From: Salinarchaeum sp. IM2453
GTDB lineage: Archaea > Halobacteriota > Halobacteria > Halobacteriales > Salinarchaeaceae
Length of the DNA stretch: 64,000 nt
NCBI RefSeq assembly: GCF_019693215.1
Contig: NZ_CP081183.1
Location: forward strand, 375,226 to 439,225
Direction of reading: 5' to 3'
The translations under genes were made by a program, and so were the position numbers. This document shows positions 5,832 to 33,613 of this stretch, in pieces. The notes beneath the pieces were generated by a model. It searched no databases. It saw only the letters and a program-made list of their open reading frames with translations, and had not been told where the DNA came from. The stretch's first letter is position 1. Each line of letters starts with the position of its first letter.

Positions 5832-5887
5832 GTCAACTGCTCCGGGGTCAAGCCCCGAGGCACCCTGCCTATATCTCTGTAGACAGA
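5832..5887 (+). repeat. Dispersed palindromic element, copy B
   Basis: GTCAACTGCTCCGGGG is followed by TCAAG, CCCCGAGG, a GGCACCCTGCC mini-hairpin and CTCTGTAGACAGAG, itself a perfect inverted repeat. It occupies nearly all of the 70-base gap between two convergent genes. It matches copies A, C, D and E in order and spacing. Confidence 0.8.
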
Positions 5888-16133: not shown

Positions 16134-16185
16134 GAGAAGATGTCTGATCCAAATCAGAATCAGACGAGAGAACTATGAACCTCTC

Positions 16186-16228
16186 CGGGGTCAAGCCCCG
16201 AGGCAGTCGCCTCGATCGCCTGTACAGA
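16186..16228 (+). repeat. Dispersed palindromic element, copy C
   Basis: TGAACCTCTCCGGGG is followed by TCAAG, CCCCGAGG, a perfect GAGGC/AGTC/GCCTC hairpin and the end CTGTACAGA. It lies in the 155-base gap between the acyltransferase and the DUF1405 gene. It has the same arrangement as copies A, B, D and E. Confidence 0.8.
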
Positions 16229-25507: not shown

Positions 25508-26869
25508 ATGGACCGGTATGATGTGGCAATCGTCGGTGGCGGACCAGCCGGAGCCTGTGCTGCTCGGGTTGCCGCACAGCAAGGTGCACGAACAATATTG
25601 TTTGAATCTGGAGTCCCTCGCGAAGATCGAGATAGTCCCGGCCCAGACTCAACGGATGCTGCAGCACTGTTAGATTACTGGGTTGACATCGCCGATCTGG
25701 ACTATGATAGCGTGCCAGACGACGTTATTCTGCGAGAACTTGAGCAAGCGGCTTTCGTTAGTCCGCAGCAAGAACTGGTGATTGACCGTACAGGAATCGA
25801 TAGTACACATCCGTCGTTTGGATTTACGTTTAATCGAGTGAAAATGGACGACTGGCTCCATGAACAGGCCAAAGAAACTGGTGCAGAGCTTGAAGTGGGA
25901 ACCAGCGTTCGGAGTGTTAATCCTGATCAGGGAGCGATTCCGGAACATCGGCTACAACTCTCAACTGGCGAGGAAGTGATCGCCAAATCACTGATCCTTG
26001 CAGATGGCCCACAGCGTCGGATTACAAATGGGACGCTTGATGATCTGCTTCCAGTAGATGAGACAAGTACAGACTATCTTGGAACACAAGATGCAAATCA
26101 TATTGCATATCAGGAACACCGACGAGTTCCTGAAGAACTCTTTGAAGATGATACACTGCGGTTTTGGTGGGGTGCAATACCGGGTGAAACCGCGTACCCA
26201 TGGGTATTCCCAAATGATGAAAACATTGCACGAATTGGACTAACAATGCCAATTGGATTGGGAATCGACGACGTGGAAGAGCCAAGTTCCTACACGCTCG
26301 TTGACTACGACGATGACGAACTCCCGTCACCACAAACGTACATTGAACGATTACTTGAGCGGGAGTATCCAGAGTACGACATCTCTGATTTCCCACGCGT
26401 TGAGTCACGCGGGAAACGAAAGGGTACCGAGACATACTCAATCTCGTCAACAAAACCGATTGATTCGCCAGTTGGCGCAAACATCGCCGTAGCCGGTGGG
26501 GCAATGGGCTCAACCTCCGCATTCCATGAGGGCGGATACCATACTGCGATGCGAACAGGAAAAATTGCTGGCTATCTGGCGGCAAACGATAGCTTAGAAC
26601 AGTACAATGATGCATGGAAAGCAGCTATCGGCACCGAAGTGATCCGAAACATCATCTTTGCTGAGTTTGTCCGGGATTACAAGCCAGCAGATTGGGATAA
26701 GGCATTTAGTATTGCCAAGGAGCTCCAGTCTGATAGCGGAAATGCCGTGAAACCATCGTTATCCGCTGGGCTAACAGGATTGTCACTATTTGGAAAATAT
26801 AAGCTCCAAAAGTTATGGTATAGGTACACGGACTTCGTCCAGATTAAAGAATCAGACTATATCGTGTGA
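25508..26869 (+). CDS. Geranylgeranyl-reductase-like FAD-dependent oxidoreductase
   Basis: 453 aa. The Rossmann start YDVAIVGGGPAGACAARVAAQ binds the FAD ADP moiety. VKMDDWLHEQAKETGAELEVG and SLILADGPQRR are further FAD-fold blocks. IAVAGGAMGSTSAFHEGGYHTAMRTG is the C-terminal FAD site seen in the geranylgeranyl reductase family. It is more divergent than the two paralogues at 55559 and 62328, and the substrate is open: isoprenoid lipid, menaquinone or other. It is a lone gene followed by a mobile-element remnant. Confidence 0.8.
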   Translation: MDRYDVAIVGGGPAGACAARVAAQQGARTILFESGVPREDRDSPGPDSTDAAALLDYWVDIADLDYDSVPDDVILRELEQAAFVSPQQELVIDRTGIDSTHPSFGFTFNRVKMDDWLHEQAKETGAELEVGTSVRSVNPDQGAIPEHRLQLSTGEEVIAKSLILADGPQRRITNGTLDDLLPVDETSTDYLGTQDANHIAYQEHRRVPEELFEDDTLRFWWGAIPGETAYPWVFPNDENIARIGLTMPIGLGIDDVEEPSSYTLVDYDDDELPSPQTYIERLLEREYPEYDISDFPRVESRGKRKGTETYSISSTKPIDSPVGANIAVAGGAMGSTSAFHEGGYHTAMRTGKIAGYLAANDSLEQYNDAWKAAIGTEVIRNIIFAEFVRDYKPADWDKAFSIAKELQSDSGNAVKPSLSAGLTGLSLFGKYKLQKLWYRYTDFVQIKESDYIV

Positions 26870-26913
26870 TCAGAAAGATCTGATGGACACCTGCGTTGTT
26901 TGTGTTTTACCCG

Positions 26914-27360
26914 TTGACTGTACAGGCAGTCAAAGCGACTGCCCCGGGGCTTGATCCCGGAATGAGTTCACAGCGAAGGTTGTGATCTGATCGAAGGATC
27001 AAAAACACATGGCCGATCAACGACAAGGATTAGATGATAGAGACTGTAATAGAAAGTGAACCCGGGAAATATTCCACGGGTTCAGATCACTGCGTGTTTC
27101 AATCCCTGTCCGAGCTGCTATAAGGCAACGATGAATGGCAGAGAACCCAAACACGCAACACCTGATTGAGTTCAGAGTTGGTTACTTCGACCCGCCCGGC
27201 ACGAGGGTTAGCCGGCTGACTTGGTGTGCCGCCACAGGATGATGCCGGTCGTTAGTGTTCCGGGCGTATATTTTAAGCGTTCTATGAAAATTATTTATGA
27301 ATAATCTCCGTAACTTACAGCGGTAGCAAGGCGAAAGCCCATCGGCTTTAGCCCTGTCTT
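26914..27360 (-). mobile_element. PATE/IS200-IS605-derived non-coding element (limits uncertain)
   Basis: On the minus strand a hairpin AAAGCC/GGCTTT (27334-27349) marks one side. A palindromic end like copies A-E (copy D) closes the other at 26920-26971. The interior is G+C-richer than its surroundings and holds only short frames with no known domain. The size (about 450 bases) and one-sided palindrome resemble the palindrome-associated transposable elements reported from Haloquadratum, as I remember them. Exact ends are not defined because I cannot see an empty site. Confidence 0.5.
26920..26971 (-). repeat. Dispersed palindromic element, copy D
   Basis: On the minus strand: GTGAACTCATTCCGGGATC, AAGCCCCGG, then a perfect GGCAGTC/GCTTT/GACTGCC hairpin, ending CTGTAC. 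It has the same order of blocks as copies A, B, C and E. It forms one end of the larger element 26914-27360. Confidence 0.78.
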
Positions 27361-27631
27361 TTACCCATAAGTTCGCGAGACTCAAACGGACGTTTCAGAC
27401 GCTGTCGACCCTGATTTGTACTCGAGAGATTGAGATGAGCAGCGATTTGGGCAGTGATATCGGCGGTAGGGAGTGACTAAATGCGGATAAACAAGATCGG
27501 CAAAATCGTTCTATGAGGGAGTCACATCCGTAGAGATCGGTATTTTCAGCCGAGTTCATCGATCCCGACAGCGACGTGATTTGTGGGTAAGAGACAGGGA
27601 TTCAGCCGTGTGGAGGAGGTCAAGATAGTAT

Positions 27632-28501
27632 CTAGTCGTCGGAGAACTGGGTAATCCGGGGAACATCACGTTCAACGTCTTTCTGAAGCTTGCCAATCCG
27701 GTCCAATAGCCACATCCAGAGGACAAGACCTTGGACAAGGAAGACATTTGTTACGAGGAAGAATGTTGCTTCTTCAATTGGTAGACCAAGTGGGTCAATA
27801 CCAGTCAGATAAGTATAATCGAAGAACCAGATGCCCCAGCGATTGATCGCAAGCCAGTCAGCAACCCAGAGGTATGTGGTCGGAATACCAATGCCAAGGA
27901 TCACCATCTTTCGAGCCTTGACCAGATACGGCCAGCCAAATGCCCACTGGATAGCAAAGACCGGTCCAGCCCATGCCAGTATCATTCCCATGTAAAATGT
28001 TGAATCCTGCCAGAAAAGCAGGACGATCCCGACGGCAGAGACAAAAAACCCAGCAAGTGCTCCGCCAATTCGCTGTCGACGAGGGATATTCAACGACATC
28101 GATTTAACGTCAATAAACTGGTATAGTATGAGACTAGTGAGTATCGACTGGAGAATAAAGAACAGATACTCTCCCGGAGGGATATACCAGAACCGGCCTT
28201 GAATTGCGTTCGCTGGATAATCCCAGACCCCAACCTGAATAAGATAGCTATCCCATGGGGTCGTATATACAACCGCCATGATGACCATGATTCCAATGCC
28301 AATGAGTGCTTCACGATCCCACCACGCATCATCACGACGACGGGCTAGATAAGCAAACAAAACAAGCGGCGGTATGATCAGTAGAGCGTGAAACTCCATA
28401 TACGTAAGATCCGCGACTCGCTCGTTTGTTTCAGATGCTACGCTGCTAAGGAACGGCAACGAAGACTGTCCCATGGGTAGTGAGGTGAGTGCTGTGTTCA
28501 T
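27632..28501 (-). CDS. crtY: Lycopene beta-cyclase (CrtYc/CrtYd type, fused)
   Basis: 289 aa with about seven hydrophobic helices in two related halves. The first half has VVYTTPWDSYLIQVGVWDYP followed by GEYLFFILQSILTSLIL. The second has NRWGIWFFDYTYLTGIDPLGLPIEEATFFLVTN. The PWD..W..Y and E(Y/E)..FF pattern is that of archaeal/fungal-type lycopene cyclases. The enzyme turns lycopene into beta-carotene, which is cleaved to retinal. Retinal is the chromophore of the halorhodopsin encoded just upstream in the same locus. An ACTAGTTGG motif lies 43-51 bases before the ATG. Met10 or Met35 are alternative starts, but the promoter geometry favours the first. Confidence 0.9.
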   Translation of the reverse strand: MNTALTSLPMGQSSLPFLSSVASETNERVADLTYMEFHALLIIPPLVLFAYLARRRDDAWWDREALIGIGIMVIMAVVYTTPWDSYLIQVGVWDYPANAIQGRFWYIPPGEYLFFILQSILTSLILYQFIDVKSMSLNIPRRQRIGGALAGFFVSAVGIVLLFWQDSTFYMGMILAWAGPVFAIQWAFGWPYLVKARKMVILGIGIPTTYLWVADWLAINRWGIWFFDYTYLTGIDPLGLPIEEATFFLVTNVFLVQGLVLWMWLLDRIGKLQKDVERDVPRITQFSDD

Positions 28502-28653: not shown

Positions 28654-28707
28654 GTCAACGGCTTCGGGGTTAAGCCCCGTGGCATCCGCCTCGATTATTC
28701 TGTGAAA
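28654..28707 (+). repeat. Dispersed palindromic element, copy E
   Basis: GTCAACGGCTTCGGGGTTAAG, CCCCGTGG, CATCCGCCTCGATTA, ending CTGTGAAA. It matches the block order of copies A-D with a weaker second stem. It lies between the bat stop and the crtY start. Confidence 0.75.
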
Positions 28708-28796: not shown

Positions 28797-30827
28797 TCAC
28801 GACTCAGATGTTTGCTCAGGGAAGAATGCAGAAATAAGCTTTCGCTGTGCCGTCCGAAGATGCTGATGGAACGTCTGTCGTGTAATTCCCATTGAATCGG
28901 CTAGATCCTCTCCCTCAACAGGACGTGGCCACTCGAAGTAACCGGCCTGATAAGCAGTTTCTAATGCCGCATATTGTCGATCAGTCAAGTCGTCGCGAAC
29001 TGTCGAGATAAACTCACCAGGCGTGCGGGTACTACCACTTCGTTTACGCTGTGAGATCAGCGAAACATCGGCAAAGCGATCATCAAGAATATTAACGACA
29101 CGGCGAATCTCTGTTTCAGGTAGTGCTGTGAGTTCAACATGCACCTCACCAGCTGTCGCTTCTAAGTCTGTAATCTCTAGCCCATGGTCAGATACAACCT
29201 CGATAATCGGGCATCGTGTAACATCAACTGAGACAATCGCCTGATCACCATGGTCAATAACAGATGCAATAGTATCGATCGCATTGATTTCGGTCAGCAA
29301 TGACTTGACATCTTCAGGAGGGTCACGGACAGTAAGATGCAAACGAGGGATATCTCCTACGTGGGCATCAAGCCGTTTGTACTGAATACTGGTATCGAGA
29401 GCAGCTGCAATGTTAGGTAACAACAGTGATGAGTCACATATCCGGAATTCAAGTTCAATTCGCATGTCGCTGTGTAGAGCTCGGCGAGTCTGAACAGCAT
29501 TATACGAGCCGCCAACAAGAGTTCCGAGTGATTTCATGACCGAGATCTCTCGTTCATCGCCGACAAGTGCACGATCTATGTAAACGCCAAGAATGCCATA
29601 TACAGTGTTCCGATACAACAACGGAACAGAAACAAGCGTTGTGGCATCGAATGAAACGGGATCAATTGAATCAGAGGTGATCTCTGGGGCTGTTGAGGTG
29701 ATTACATCTTGTGAGTGGTATGCTTCGGCGATTGGACCACCAGTATCCAGTCGGATACGTGTCGAACGAGACATTGGATGGTTTCCATCGGTAACAACGG
29801 CAACAGGGTCACCACGTTGATGATTTACCGTTGAAATCCAGCCGCCACGGTATCCGTCAACCGCATCAATTGCCCCGAGTACATCAGAGAGTAGTGATTC
29901 AACATTGCTGGCGTTCATTGCAGCTGTTGTTACGTTCTCGAAGACAGTTTGGACACGACTAAGAGCGTCATCTAGAGTCCGTTTTTCATCATGAAGCGCG
30001 CTTGCCCGTCGCTGTGCACGTTGTTCAGCCTCACGACGAGTACTGACATCTTCTTGGAAATAAGCCCAGTATTTAACCGCAGATTCATCCGTATTGTATA
30101 GTGGCGTAACAGTAACACGGTTCCAGAAGGCACTTCCATCGGCCTGATAGTTCAGCATTTCAACGCTTGTCGATTCATGATTCTCGATTGCTTGCTCAAG
30201 CGTCGCAATATCACTTGGATCGGTCTCAGGCCCTTGTAGAAGAGTATGATCGCGGCCGAGGACCTCTGCCCTATCGTAACCCGTTAGGTCCTCATATGCG
30301 TCGTTTACGTACACTATTGGGTTGCCTGACAGTGTCGGATCAGTAATCGTGACACCGATCGGTGCATCCTCAAGCGTAGCTGCAAGCTCCTCTGCAGTCG
30401 GAGCGTGTTCTTTGGGATCCTCAATCAACCGTTCTGAAGAGGTGGTATCCACATGCTCGGGGGCATCACCATTGAGAATGTTATTGACTATACGTCGCAG
30501 TTGTGTTATCGAGGTTGGACCGTCACGCTTGATTGCTCGAAGAAAATCATCCGTTACAGGGTCAACCTCATCAATGGTGGGTTCATCGGTGTAGAAGACA
30601 TACGGTGGTGTCCGTGGTTGGTTTCTAATATATTCAAGTAGGTCATCAGCACCTGCCTCTGGATCAAGCCCCGCACTGACAATGCAATCAAACTCAGTTT
30701 GATTCATCCACTCCAGCGCAGAGTCAACATGCTCAACGGTCACAACAGAACCATCAACATCCAAGAGTGCCTCGACAGCGTCGTCAACTCCCTCATCGTG
30801 AACAAGAAGAACCCGGGGCTTGGCCAT
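28797..30827 (-). CDS. bat: Bacterio-opsin activator-type regulator (receiver-PAS-GAF-BAT-HTH)
   Basis: 676 aa from the ATG at 30827 (MAKPRVLLVHDEG); an upstream GTG is possible. A degenerate receiver-like domain (1-115) comes first. A PAS domain with FxxxTGYDRAEVLGRDHTLLQGPETDP follows (about 150-270; this is the LOV-like region as in Bat, but it lacks the NCRFL Cys motif). Next are a short coiled coil, a GAF domain (about 290-440), the bacterioopsin-activator domain, and a C-terminal HTH_10 helix-turn-helix (DLADSMGITRQTFHQHLRTAQRKL). Halobacterium Bat activates bop, crtB1 and brp under low oxygen and light. Here it lies between hop and crtY, so those are the likely targets. Confidence 0.88.
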   Translation of the reverse strand: MAKPRVLLVHDEGVDDAVEALLDVDGSVVTVEHVDSALEWMNQTEFDCIVSAGLDPEAGADDLLEYIRNQPRTPPYVFYTDEPTIDEVDPVTDDFLRAIKRDGPTSITQLRRIVNNILNGDAPEHVDTTSSERLIEDPKEHAPTAEELAATLEDAPIGVTITDPTLSGNPIVYVNDAYEDLTGYDRAEVLGRDHTLLQGPETDPSDIATLEQAIENHESTSVEMLNYQADGSAFWNRVTVTPLYNTDESAVKYWAYFQEDVSTRREAEQRAQRRASALHDEKRTLDDALSRVQTVFENVTTAAMNASNVESLLSDVLGAIDAVDGYRGGWISTVNHQRGDPVAVVTDGNHPMSRSTRIRLDTGGPIAEAYHSQDVITSTAPEITSDSIDPVSFDATTLVSVPLLYRNTVYGILGVYIDRALVGDEREISVMKSLGTLVGGSYNAVQTRRALHSDMRIELEFRICDSSLLLPNIAAALDTSIQYKRLDAHVGDIPRLHLTVRDPPEDVKSLLTEINAIDTIASVIDHGDQAIVSVDVTRCPIIEVVSDHGLEITDLEATAGEVHVELTALPETEIRRVVNILDDRFADVSLISQRKRSGSTRTPGEFISTVRDDLTDRQYAALETAYQAGYFEWPRPVEGEDLADSMGITRQTFHQHLRTAQRKLISAFFPEQTSES

Positions 30828-31143
30828 ATTACGGTATTTAGACACTCAACCAATGAATATTGCGAAACCAGAGATTACGCGAGAGACAGTATATCACAAT
30901 CGCTCATCTGTAGAAGCGAATACCCGGCGAATTCAACCGCGGATCTATGAGCGAGAGGTTCTCATCATTCCAAACAGAACCGGTTATTGACGCAAGTACC
31001 CGGGTCTACAGATGAGCGTATCACAATAATATATCAAAAAAGTGCAGCGCGAGTGCTGCAGCTATGAGGTGGTAATTCACGAAGAAAGGAAATCAGTTAG
31101 AAAGCTATGCGAAGAGGTAACGATCTAACGACCGGTGGGGTCG
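30828..31143. other. Intergenic region between hop and bat
   Basis: 316 bases. It contains the miniature inverted-repeat element and its 9 bp duplications (30892-31027). The bat promoter must lie in or beside it; only about 65 bases separate the element from the bat ATG, and no strong TATA box is seen there. Confidence 0.6.
30892..31027. mobile_element. Miniature inverted-repeat element (118 bp) with 9 bp target duplication
   Basis: The 14 bp perfect terminal inverted repeats are CGCTCATCTGTAGA (30901-30914) and TCTACAGATGAGCG (31005-31018). They are flanked by identical direct repeats TATCACAAT at 30892-30900 and 31019-31027. The inside holds no gene. This is the textbook footprint of a non-autonomous DNA transposon. 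The parent transposase is not in the window. Confidence 0.85.
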
Positions 31144-33442: not shown

Positions 33443-33613
33443 TCACTCACGAGTACGGCGACGGTATTCTGCGTGTGGATCTGTTGGTGAGTACGGTGCT
33501 GGAGCGCTGTTGATCGCATCAGCACCACAGTCAGGACAGGTGTTAGAAAGTGTATAGACAGGGCGGTCATGGACTGCTTTCCATGCAGAACAGACCTTGA
33601 TGTCCGATTTCAT
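33443..33613 (-). CDS. nop10: rRNA pseudouridylation/box H/ACA RNP protein Nop10
   Basis: 56 aa, MKSDIKVCSAWKAVHD..YTLSNTCPDCG..NSAPAPYSPTDPHAEYRRRTRE. The zinc-ribbon Cys pattern (C8, C26, C29) and the proline-rich APAPYSPxDP motif identify Nop10, the Cbf5 partner in H/ACA RNPs. It starts 6 bases after the aIF2-alpha stop, in the classic archaeal order. Confidence 0.94.
   Translation of the reverse strand: MKSDIKVCSAWKAVHDRPVYTLSNTCPDCGADAINSAPAPYSPTDPHAEYRRRTRE

What the first reader, a model, noticed from the sequence alone, without database searches (positions are those of the whole stretch)
26914..27360. Non-coding PATE-like element with a palindrome at one end
Seen: a minus-strand element of about 450 bases with a stem AAAGCC/GGCTTT on one side and a copy of the dispersed palindrome on the other. 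It is G+C-richer than its neighbours and has no gene. Known: Haloquadratum carries palindrome-associated elements of similar size, and IS200/IS605 elements use end hairpins. Inference: mobilised by a TnpA encoded elsewhere, or a guide-RNA-like relic of a TnpB locus.
Basis: partly seen in the sequence, partly recalled or inferred. Interest (0 to 1): 0.55.

Follow-up and report, generated by a model that had tools for sequence, protein, structure and literature searches.

The report
H/ACA guide RNA between transposon scars
The supposed mobile element is really the haloarchaeal guide-RNA gene that directs pseudouridine formation in ribosomal RNA, sitting between the remains of two unrelated transposable elements, so it is mostly ordinary.

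Summary
The letters are there, but the reading is mostly wrong. Between two convergent genes (stops at 26869 and 27632) lies a composite, not one element. The core (27091-27270, plus strand) is the two-hairpin box H/ACA guide RNA of haloarchaea. Covariance models built without the window find both hairpins here (E 7.5e-13 and 3.2e-21). A relative's copy matches 373 of 392 genomes of the order. Hairpin 2 pairs best with U1950 (helix 69) among 521 uridines of the genome's own 23S rRNA. The four partner proteins are encoded in the genome. The left palindrome (26919-26971) is a 53-bp end-to-end scar of a TnpB element whose 1.5-kb copies with open TnpB genes are also in this genome. The right stem (AAAGCC/GGCTTT) belongs to a second, unrelated scar (27315-27352 plus 27607-27623), split by a 246-bp MITE. 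No second copy of the core was found in the genome, G+C is not raised over the whole span, and the two scars are of different families. So it is neither a TnpA-mobilised unit nor a TnpB guide-RNA relic. Loose ends: one guide base of hairpin 1 differs from 45 of 46 relative loci, and the promoter-like box of relatives is not at its usual place.

The parts
26919..26971 (+). Relic A: 53-bp terminal-only (left end fused to right end) scar of a TnpB/IS1341-type element
   Evidence: the window copy, nine other fused copies and one partial copy (L098) among the fetched loci, with differing flanks; at L087-L090 the left-end and right-end parts lie about 1.45-1.55 kb apart around an open 412-419-aa TnpB frame.
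26972..27090 (+). Leader upstream of the guide RNA; AT-rich boxes at 27067-27073 and 27047-27051; imperfect 28-bp palindrome 27057-27084
   Evidence: Sequence; only weak matches elsewhere in the genome; promoter position compared with 41 distinct rows from relatives.
27091..27160 (+). H/ACA hairpin 1 (HP1): lower stem 27091-27099/27149-27157, guide arms 27100-27104 and 27144-27148, K-turn motif GAG 27112-27114/GATGA 27130-27134, ACA box 27158-27160
   Evidence: cmsearch with a model built without the window, 60.4 bits, E 7.5e-13; only match at E <= 1 in the genome, 150 of 487 first-look candidates scored; covariation.
27161..27192 (+). Spacer between the two hairpins
   Evidence: Spacers vary among relatives; a long spacer between the two hairpins is described for halobacteria in PMC2584109 (passage).
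27193..27270 (+). H/ACA hairpin 2 (HP2): lower stem 27193-27199/27260-27266, guide arms 27203-27210 and 27250-27257, K-turn motif CTGA 27216-27219/GATGA 27238-27242, ATA box 27268-27270
   Evidence: cmsearch with a model built without the window, 92.4 bits, E 3.2e-21; best target U1950 of own 23S rRNA.
27315..27352 (+). Relic B, first part (holds the AAAGCC/GGCTTT stem): terminal-only scar of a ~500-bp PATE-like element
   Evidence: (copies): of 26 places with this start among the fetched loci, 3 have the end motif at 480-481 bp, 5 at 35 bp, the window at 289, one at 651 (the end of its neighbour copy), and 16 none by that pattern.
27353..27598 (.). 246-bp MITE with inverted ends CCTGTCTTTTACCCATAA/TTGTGGGTAAGAGACAGG, inserted into the palindrome of relic B; flanking 8-mers 27345-27352 and 27599-27606 (6 of 8 alike)
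   Evidence: 9 copies aligned, window included, those matching over at least 150 bp; inverted repeat I1.
27607..27623 (+). Relic B, second part (terminal sequence CGTGTGGAGGAGGTCAA)
   Evidence: In the window the end motif lies at offset 289 instead of 35, i.e. 254 bp more = 246-bp MITE + 8 bp.

Best explanation
The core is the haloarchaeal two-hairpin box H/ACA small RNA. Transcribed from the plus strand, each hairpin would bind L7Ae at its K-turn and Cbf5-Nop10-Gar1 at its stem and ANA box. The internal loop pairs with both sides of a uridine of 23S rRNA, which Cbf5 turns into pseudouridine. HP2 (guides GAGGGUUA and GUUA) targets U1950 in helix 69 (E. coli 1915, H. marismortui 1956; possibly also the 1917/1958 equivalent by an alternative fold, as proposed for Haloferax). 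HP1 (guides CAAUC and AACCC) corresponds to the hairpin that targets U2615 (E. coli 2586, H. marismortui 2621). The palindromes on either side are unrelated mobile-element scars in the same convergent intergenic gap: a 53-bp terminal-only TnpB-element relic on the left, and on the right a terminal-only PATE relic split by a 246-bp MITE. Shown here: homology, structure, guide complementarity of HP2, presence of the protein genes, anatomy of the repeats. Inferred: transcription, RNP assembly and modification.
For: Models from 27 HP1 and 31 HP2 sequences of relatives (of 34 and 40 distinct ones extracted), window excluded, each hit the window once, end to end: 60.4 bits, E 7.5e-13, and 92.4 bits, E 3.2e-21. 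A relative's two-hairpin region matches 373 of 392 genomes of the order, 340 of 345 among those at least 90% complete. HP1 was found in all 46 relative loci that I had chosen for this RNA, 27 of which built the model. In 45 distinct HP1 rows 97.6% of cells pair, 10 of 24 pairs show changes on both sides (shuffle mean 4.6) and sliding the partners drops pairing to 29-44%. HP2 guides rank U1950 first among 521 uridines of the genome's own 23S rRNA (8+4 bp). Cbf5, L7Ae, Nop10 and Gar1 are each present above curated cut-offs. PMC2584109 (passages) and PMC4652768 (section 14) describe the same two hairpins and targets in Haloferax; the latter names Haloquadratum among carriers. Relic anatomy.
Against: HP1 has the lowest model score of the 47 sources searched (60.4 bits; next 68.1). 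A guide base that is G in 45 of 46 relative loci is A here. With the window's own arms, in two definitions, my scan did not recover U2615; with the relative's arms it came third of 9 candidates, behind U1946 and U2858. HP2 with its left arm two bases shorter ranked U1178 first (score 19.0), and U1952 (the 1917 equivalent) was not among the eight listed. The promoter-like box at -39 to -35 in relatives is not at that place here. 19 of 392 genomes gave no match. Rfam has no matching family at gathering score. The minus strand folds as well as the plus strand. No expression data were available.
Confidence: 0.94

Rival explanations
1. A single non-coding PATE of about 450 bp (26914-27360) that moves by a TnpA acting in trans.
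For: Both ends carry palindromes of IS605/TnpB or PATE type with many copies, and PATEs of Haloquadratum have near-terminal palindromes and are too short for a transposase gene (PMC3119063, passages).
Against: Left and right palindromes are end-to-end scars of two different families; the middle has no second copy found in the genome and is a gene shared across the order.
Confidence: 0.02
2. A guide-RNA (omega-RNA) relic of a TnpB locus.
For: The left scar keeps 31 bp of the right end of a TnpB element, next to where an omega-RNA would end (recalled); open TnpB genes of this family are in the genome.
Against: Only the end bases of the TnpB element remain; the structured middle matches H/ACA models and nothing else in the genome, the full TnpB copies included.
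Confidence: 0.01
3. An H/ACA RNA gene in decline: HP2 still works but HP1 no longer guides the pseudouridine near the peptidyl-transferase centre, and the original promoter has been replaced.
For: Guide G changed to A (45 of 46 relative loci have G); lowest HP1 score of 47 sources; relatives' promoter-like box not at its place.
Against: HP1 keeps its stems through compensatory changes (row 1), its 3' guide, K-turn motif and ACA box, which points to continued selection; one other relative locus also has A.
Confidence: 0.15

Closest known systems
Haloferax volcanii two-hairpin H/ACA sRNA (HP1/HP2; Hvo1, Hvo2), PMC2584109 and PMC4652768
   Same: Two K-turn hairpins with ANA boxes, same order, spacer between them, HP2 guide complementary to helix 69 of 23S rRNA.
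   Different: HP2 box is ATA rather than ACA (ATA also seen for example in L048, L053, L056); one HP1 guide base altered; promoter-like box not conserved in place; the gene lies between mobile-element scars. I could not compare with the H. volcanii letters directly (supplements not open to me).
Terminal-only 52-bp version of ISHwa23 and core-deleted PATEs of Haloquadratum walsbyi (PMC3119063)
   Same: Relics A and B: short copies in which left and right ends are fused while full-length relatives persist elsewhere in the genome.
   Different: Not compared by sequence with the Haloquadratum elements; whether these scars arose by deletion in place or by transposition of the short form cannot be told from one genome.
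Haloquadratum MITEs and A-type small mobile repeats that insert into PATEs (PMC3119063)
   Same: The 246-bp repeat has inverted ends and sits in a near-terminal palindrome.
   Different: Longer than the ~110-bp A-type repeats, and several copies are flanked by 8-bp repeats, whereas A-type repeats are said not to cause target duplications.

Membership tests
[quoted passage not shown]
   Models R1 and R2, built without the window, align end to end; covariation supports the HP1 structure; in HP2 6 of 18 pairs show a change on both sides in at least one sequence.
Archaeal box H/ACA sRNA | K-turn or K-loop in the upper stem | tested here: met
   GAG/GATGA in HP1 and CTGA/GATGA in HP2, in columns conserved among relatives. 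Judged by motif only.
Archaeal box H/ACA sRNA | ANA box just 3' of the lower stem | tested here: met
   ACA at 27158-27160 in HP1 and ATA at 27268-27270 in HP2.
Archaeal box H/ACA sRNA | Internal loop complementary to both sides of a target uridine (HP2) | tested here: met
   U1950 first of 521 uridines of own 23S rRNA, 8+4 bp, with arms chosen by hand.
Archaeal box H/ACA sRNA | The same for HP1 at U2615 | tested here: inconclusive
   A relative's guides give 3+5 bp at U2615, third of 9 candidates; the window's arms fail the 3-bp minimum on one side.
Archaeal box H/ACA sRNA | Cbf5, Nop10, Gar1 and L7Ae in the same genome | tested here: met
   all above curated cut-offs.
Archaeal box H/ACA sRNA | Expressed RNA that directs pseudouridylation | not testable with these tools
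PATE (26914-27360 as one element) | Near-terminal palindromes of one element at both ends | tested here: not met
   Left and right belong to different families, each with both of its own ends.
PATE (26914-27360 as one element) | Further copies of the element | tested here: not met
   No second copy of the middle found in the own genome.
Terminal-only PATE / IS605-type relic (26919-26971) | Left and right ends of a full-length element fused at a shared repeat | tested here: met
   with full copies in L087-L090 (TnpB identity tested for L087 and L090).
Terminal-only PATE relic (27315-27352 + 27607-27623) | Left and right ends of a longer element fused | tested here: met
   Full copies with end motif at 480-481 (3 places) and short copies at 35 (5 places) of 26 places; window at 289 because of the MITE.
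TnpB omega-RNA | RNA from the 3' part and right end of a tnpB gene | tested here: not met
   No tnpB frame beside the core; only 31 bp of right end remain, in relic A.

The most novel reading that the evidence does not exclude
In this lineage the H/ACA gene has been rebuilt among mobile-element debris: its promoter is replaced and the HP1 guide is losing its grip, so that the organism may no longer make the pseudouridine at 23S U2615 (E. coli 2586) near the peptidyl-transferase centre, while keeping the helix-69 modification.
Probability: 0.15. Interest if true: 0.4.

Novelty: new member of a known kind. Interest (0 to 1): 0.17.

Why it matters
It turns an apparent orphan mobile element into a conserved rRNA-modification guide gene. 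Rfam 15 reported nothing above gathering score for the region, so a pipeline that relies on it would miss the gene. The collected sequences give covariance models that should find both hairpins in new haloarchaeal genomes. The altered HP1 guide makes a small, testable prediction about one pseudouridine.

Tried and rejected
Rfam scan of the region: one hit up to E 5, taken as chance (BSnc120, 16.7 bits against a cut-off of 114), and only a tRNA in the window at gathering score. Single 450-bp element: rejected by the repeat anatomy. Folding of 26905-27300: both strands fold better than shuffles, so folding alone does not tell the strand. The 9-bp inverted repeat 26982-26990/27082-27090 and the palindrome 27057-27084 were considered as ends of a further insert upstream of HP1; only weak matches elsewhere, and one 9-bp inverted repeat in a stretch this long is about what chance gives (my estimate), so left unexplained. 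Shared neighbours: the left-hand gene has 60-61% identical relatives in both other family genomes, but no match to the lycopene-cyclase-like protein was found in the stretches held around them, so no empty site could be read. Target scans for HP1 with the window's own arms, and for HP2 with a shortened arm, led nowhere. Literature search for 'sR-h45', a name recalled by me, found no paper; PMC3138572 (Blaby 2011) is not held. Two searches on IS1341 transcripts and on haloarchaeal guide RNAs with IS605 were seen as listings only and not used.

Full report
What was claimed and what is there. The finding describes a minus-strand, gene-free, G+C-rich element of about 450 bp with a palindrome at each side. 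The two palindromes are real. The stretch is the gap between two convergent genes, an FAD-dependent gene resembling geranylgeranyl reductases (below the curated cut-offs of those families) that ends at 26869, and a lycopene-cyclase-domain gene on the minus strand that ends at 27632. G+C of 26914-27360 is 49.4% against 48.5% for the window; 38% of equally long stretches of the window reach it. Only 27091-27270 is raised (55.6%; 3.2% of 180-bp stretches reach it).

The core is an H/ACA guide RNA. The stretch 26972-27310 has no second match in its genome at E <= 0.001, but its part 27191-27281 matches both other genomes held for its family at 87% and 82% identity. There it lies in other gene surroundings: neither neighbour gene of the window is found in those stretches. 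With one relative's region as query, 373 of 392 genomes of the order match at E <= 0.001, and 340 of 345 of those at least 90% complete; 19 of 392 do not. From 46 relative loci (30 best hits, 16 from a pattern scan of named genomes) I extracted 34 distinct HP1 and 40 distinct HP2 sequences. I aligned 27 and 31 of them, leaving out near-duplicates and the window, and built two covariance models. Each has exactly one hit at E <= 1 in the 64-kb window: HP1 at 27090-27164 (+), 60.4 bits, E 7.5e-13, and HP2 at 27194-27272 (+), 92.4 bits, E 3.2e-21. HP1 has one hit at E <= 1 in the whole genome, 150 of 487 first-look candidates having been scored. HP1 was found in 46 of 46 relative loci, 27 of which had built the model, and the window scored lowest of the 47 sources. 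On the 45 distinct HP1 rows, 97.6% of cells form standard pairs, 10 of 24 pairs have changes on both sides against a shuffle mean of 4.6, and sliding by 1-3 columns drops pairing to 29-44%. That alignment was fitted to the model, so it leans towards the structure. Simple folding does not tell the strand: both strands beat their shuffles.

How it most likely works. Each hairpin has the parts of an archaeal H/ACA unit: lower stem, internal loop, upper stem with a K-turn motif (GAG/GATGA; CTGA/GATGA) and an ANA box (ACA; ATA). I scanned the genome's own 23S rRNA with hand-chosen guide arms. HP2 puts U1950 first of 521 uridines (8+4 bp, score 27.5; next 23.5 at U2228). U1950 lies in UAACUAUGAC, helix 69, where Haloarcula has pseudouridines 1956 and 1958 (passage). 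With the left arm two bases shorter the best site was U1178 (19.0), and U1952, the 1958 equivalent, was not among the eight listed. HP1 with a relative's arms gives U2615 with 3+5 bp, third of 9 candidates behind U1946 and U2858. With the window's arms, in two definitions, U2615 is not among the three candidates left, because the base that is G in 45 of 46 relative loci is A here. The rRNA letters around U2615 are the expected ones, so this is not a matched change. Cbf5, L7Ae, Nop10 and Gar1 genes are all present above their cut-offs; Nop10 lies in the window itself at 33446-33613.

Match with the literature. PMC2584109 (passages) predicts two H/ACA hairpins in Haloferax volcanii, HP1 for position 2621 and HP2 for 1956 and 1958, conserved in halobacteria and separated by a long spacer. 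PMC4652768 (passages and section 14) reclassifies them as Hvo1 and Hvo2 and names Haloquadratum walsbyi among carriers. PMC6138745 (passages) says that cbf5 is dispensable in H. volcanii, citing earlier work. So the core is a new member of a described family.

The left palindrome. One search aligns 26919-26971 with other places among the fetched loci: nine further fused copies, one partial copy (L098) and five places (L087-L090, L119) where the left-end part opens a longer copy. By eye the flanks of the fused copies differ directly outside the 53 bp. At L087-L090 the right-end part lies about 1.45-1.55 kb downstream and an open 412-419-aa frame lies between. Two of these four proteins were tested with Pfam (both OrfB_IS605 and the Cas12f1-like TNB domain) and one with NCBIfam (guided_TnpB, 258.9 bits). 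The window copy is the two ends fused at CCCCGGGG, the kind of 52-bp terminal-only remnant described for ISHwa23 in Haloquadratum (PMC3119063, passages).

The right stem. It starts a second family (TTACAGCGG...GGAGGAGGTCAA). Among 26 such starts in the fetched loci, 3 have the end motif 480-481 bp on, 5 have it 35 bp on, one 651 bp on (the end of its neighbour copy), 16 show none by my pattern, and the window has it 289 bp on. The extra 254 bp is a 246-bp MITE (27353-27598) plus 8 bp. Nine MITE copies, window included, were aligned, those matching over at least 150 bp. Reading that alignment by eye, five have exact 8-bp repeats at the insertion (L013, L014, L015, L018, L118); the window and L020 have 6 of 8, L117 5 of 8 and L016 4 of 8. 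At least five (window, L013, L014, L018, L117) sit in palindromes of this second family.

Why it is not one mobile unit. The two scars belong to different families, each carrying both of its own ends; no other place found in the genome joins them to the middle; and the middle is a conserved gene. The scars most likely landed in a tolerated gap around it (inference).

What is unsettled. In relatives a promoter-like GAAAG..GTTAAAC box precedes HP1 at a nearly fixed distance (41 distinct rows; of 46 loci 43 gave a row, 3 did not by the strict pattern, and 2 rows were duplicates). In the window that position reads CGGGA, with AT-rich boxes about 5 bp downstream and 16 bp upstream of it. Transcription is therefore inferred, not shown. 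It shares a family with G001, whose HP1 and HP2 letters are the same as those of Salinarchaeum laminariae R26 (L072), so it is probably an unnamed relative of Salinarchaeum (inference).

Noticed in passing
window 33446-33613 (-): The gene for Nop10, a protein partner of H/ACA RNAs, lies about 6 kb from the guide RNA gene; Cbf5 lies about 34 kb away on the other side, outside the window. No link was tested.
   Followed up: partly
window 28797-30845 (-): A Bat-type regulator (PAS, GAF, BAT, HTH_10) whose PAS domain resembles blue-light LOV domains (YtvA family, 126.7 bits, below its cut-off of 250) sits next to the lycopene-cyclase-domain gene.
   Followed up: no
window 27353-27598 and eight own-genome copies (L013-L016, L018, L020, L117, L118): A 246-bp MITE, at least five of whose nine copies sit in palindromes of a PATE-like family, five with exact 8-bp flanking repeats; its transposase was not looked for.
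   Followed up: partly
window 5835-5862, 16178-16205, 28657-28684: Three copies of a CCGGGGTCAAGCCCCG-like palindrome that resembles part of relic A.
   Followed up: no
window 27057-27084 and 26982-26990/27082-27090: An imperfect 28-bp palindrome (12 of 14 pairs) and a 9-bp inverted repeat just upstream of HP1, where relatives have their promoter-like box; unexplained.
   Followed up: partly
L087-L090 (own genome): Four copies of one TnpB element with open 412-419-aa frames coexist with ten fused terminal-only scars of the same family, window included.
   Followed up: partly
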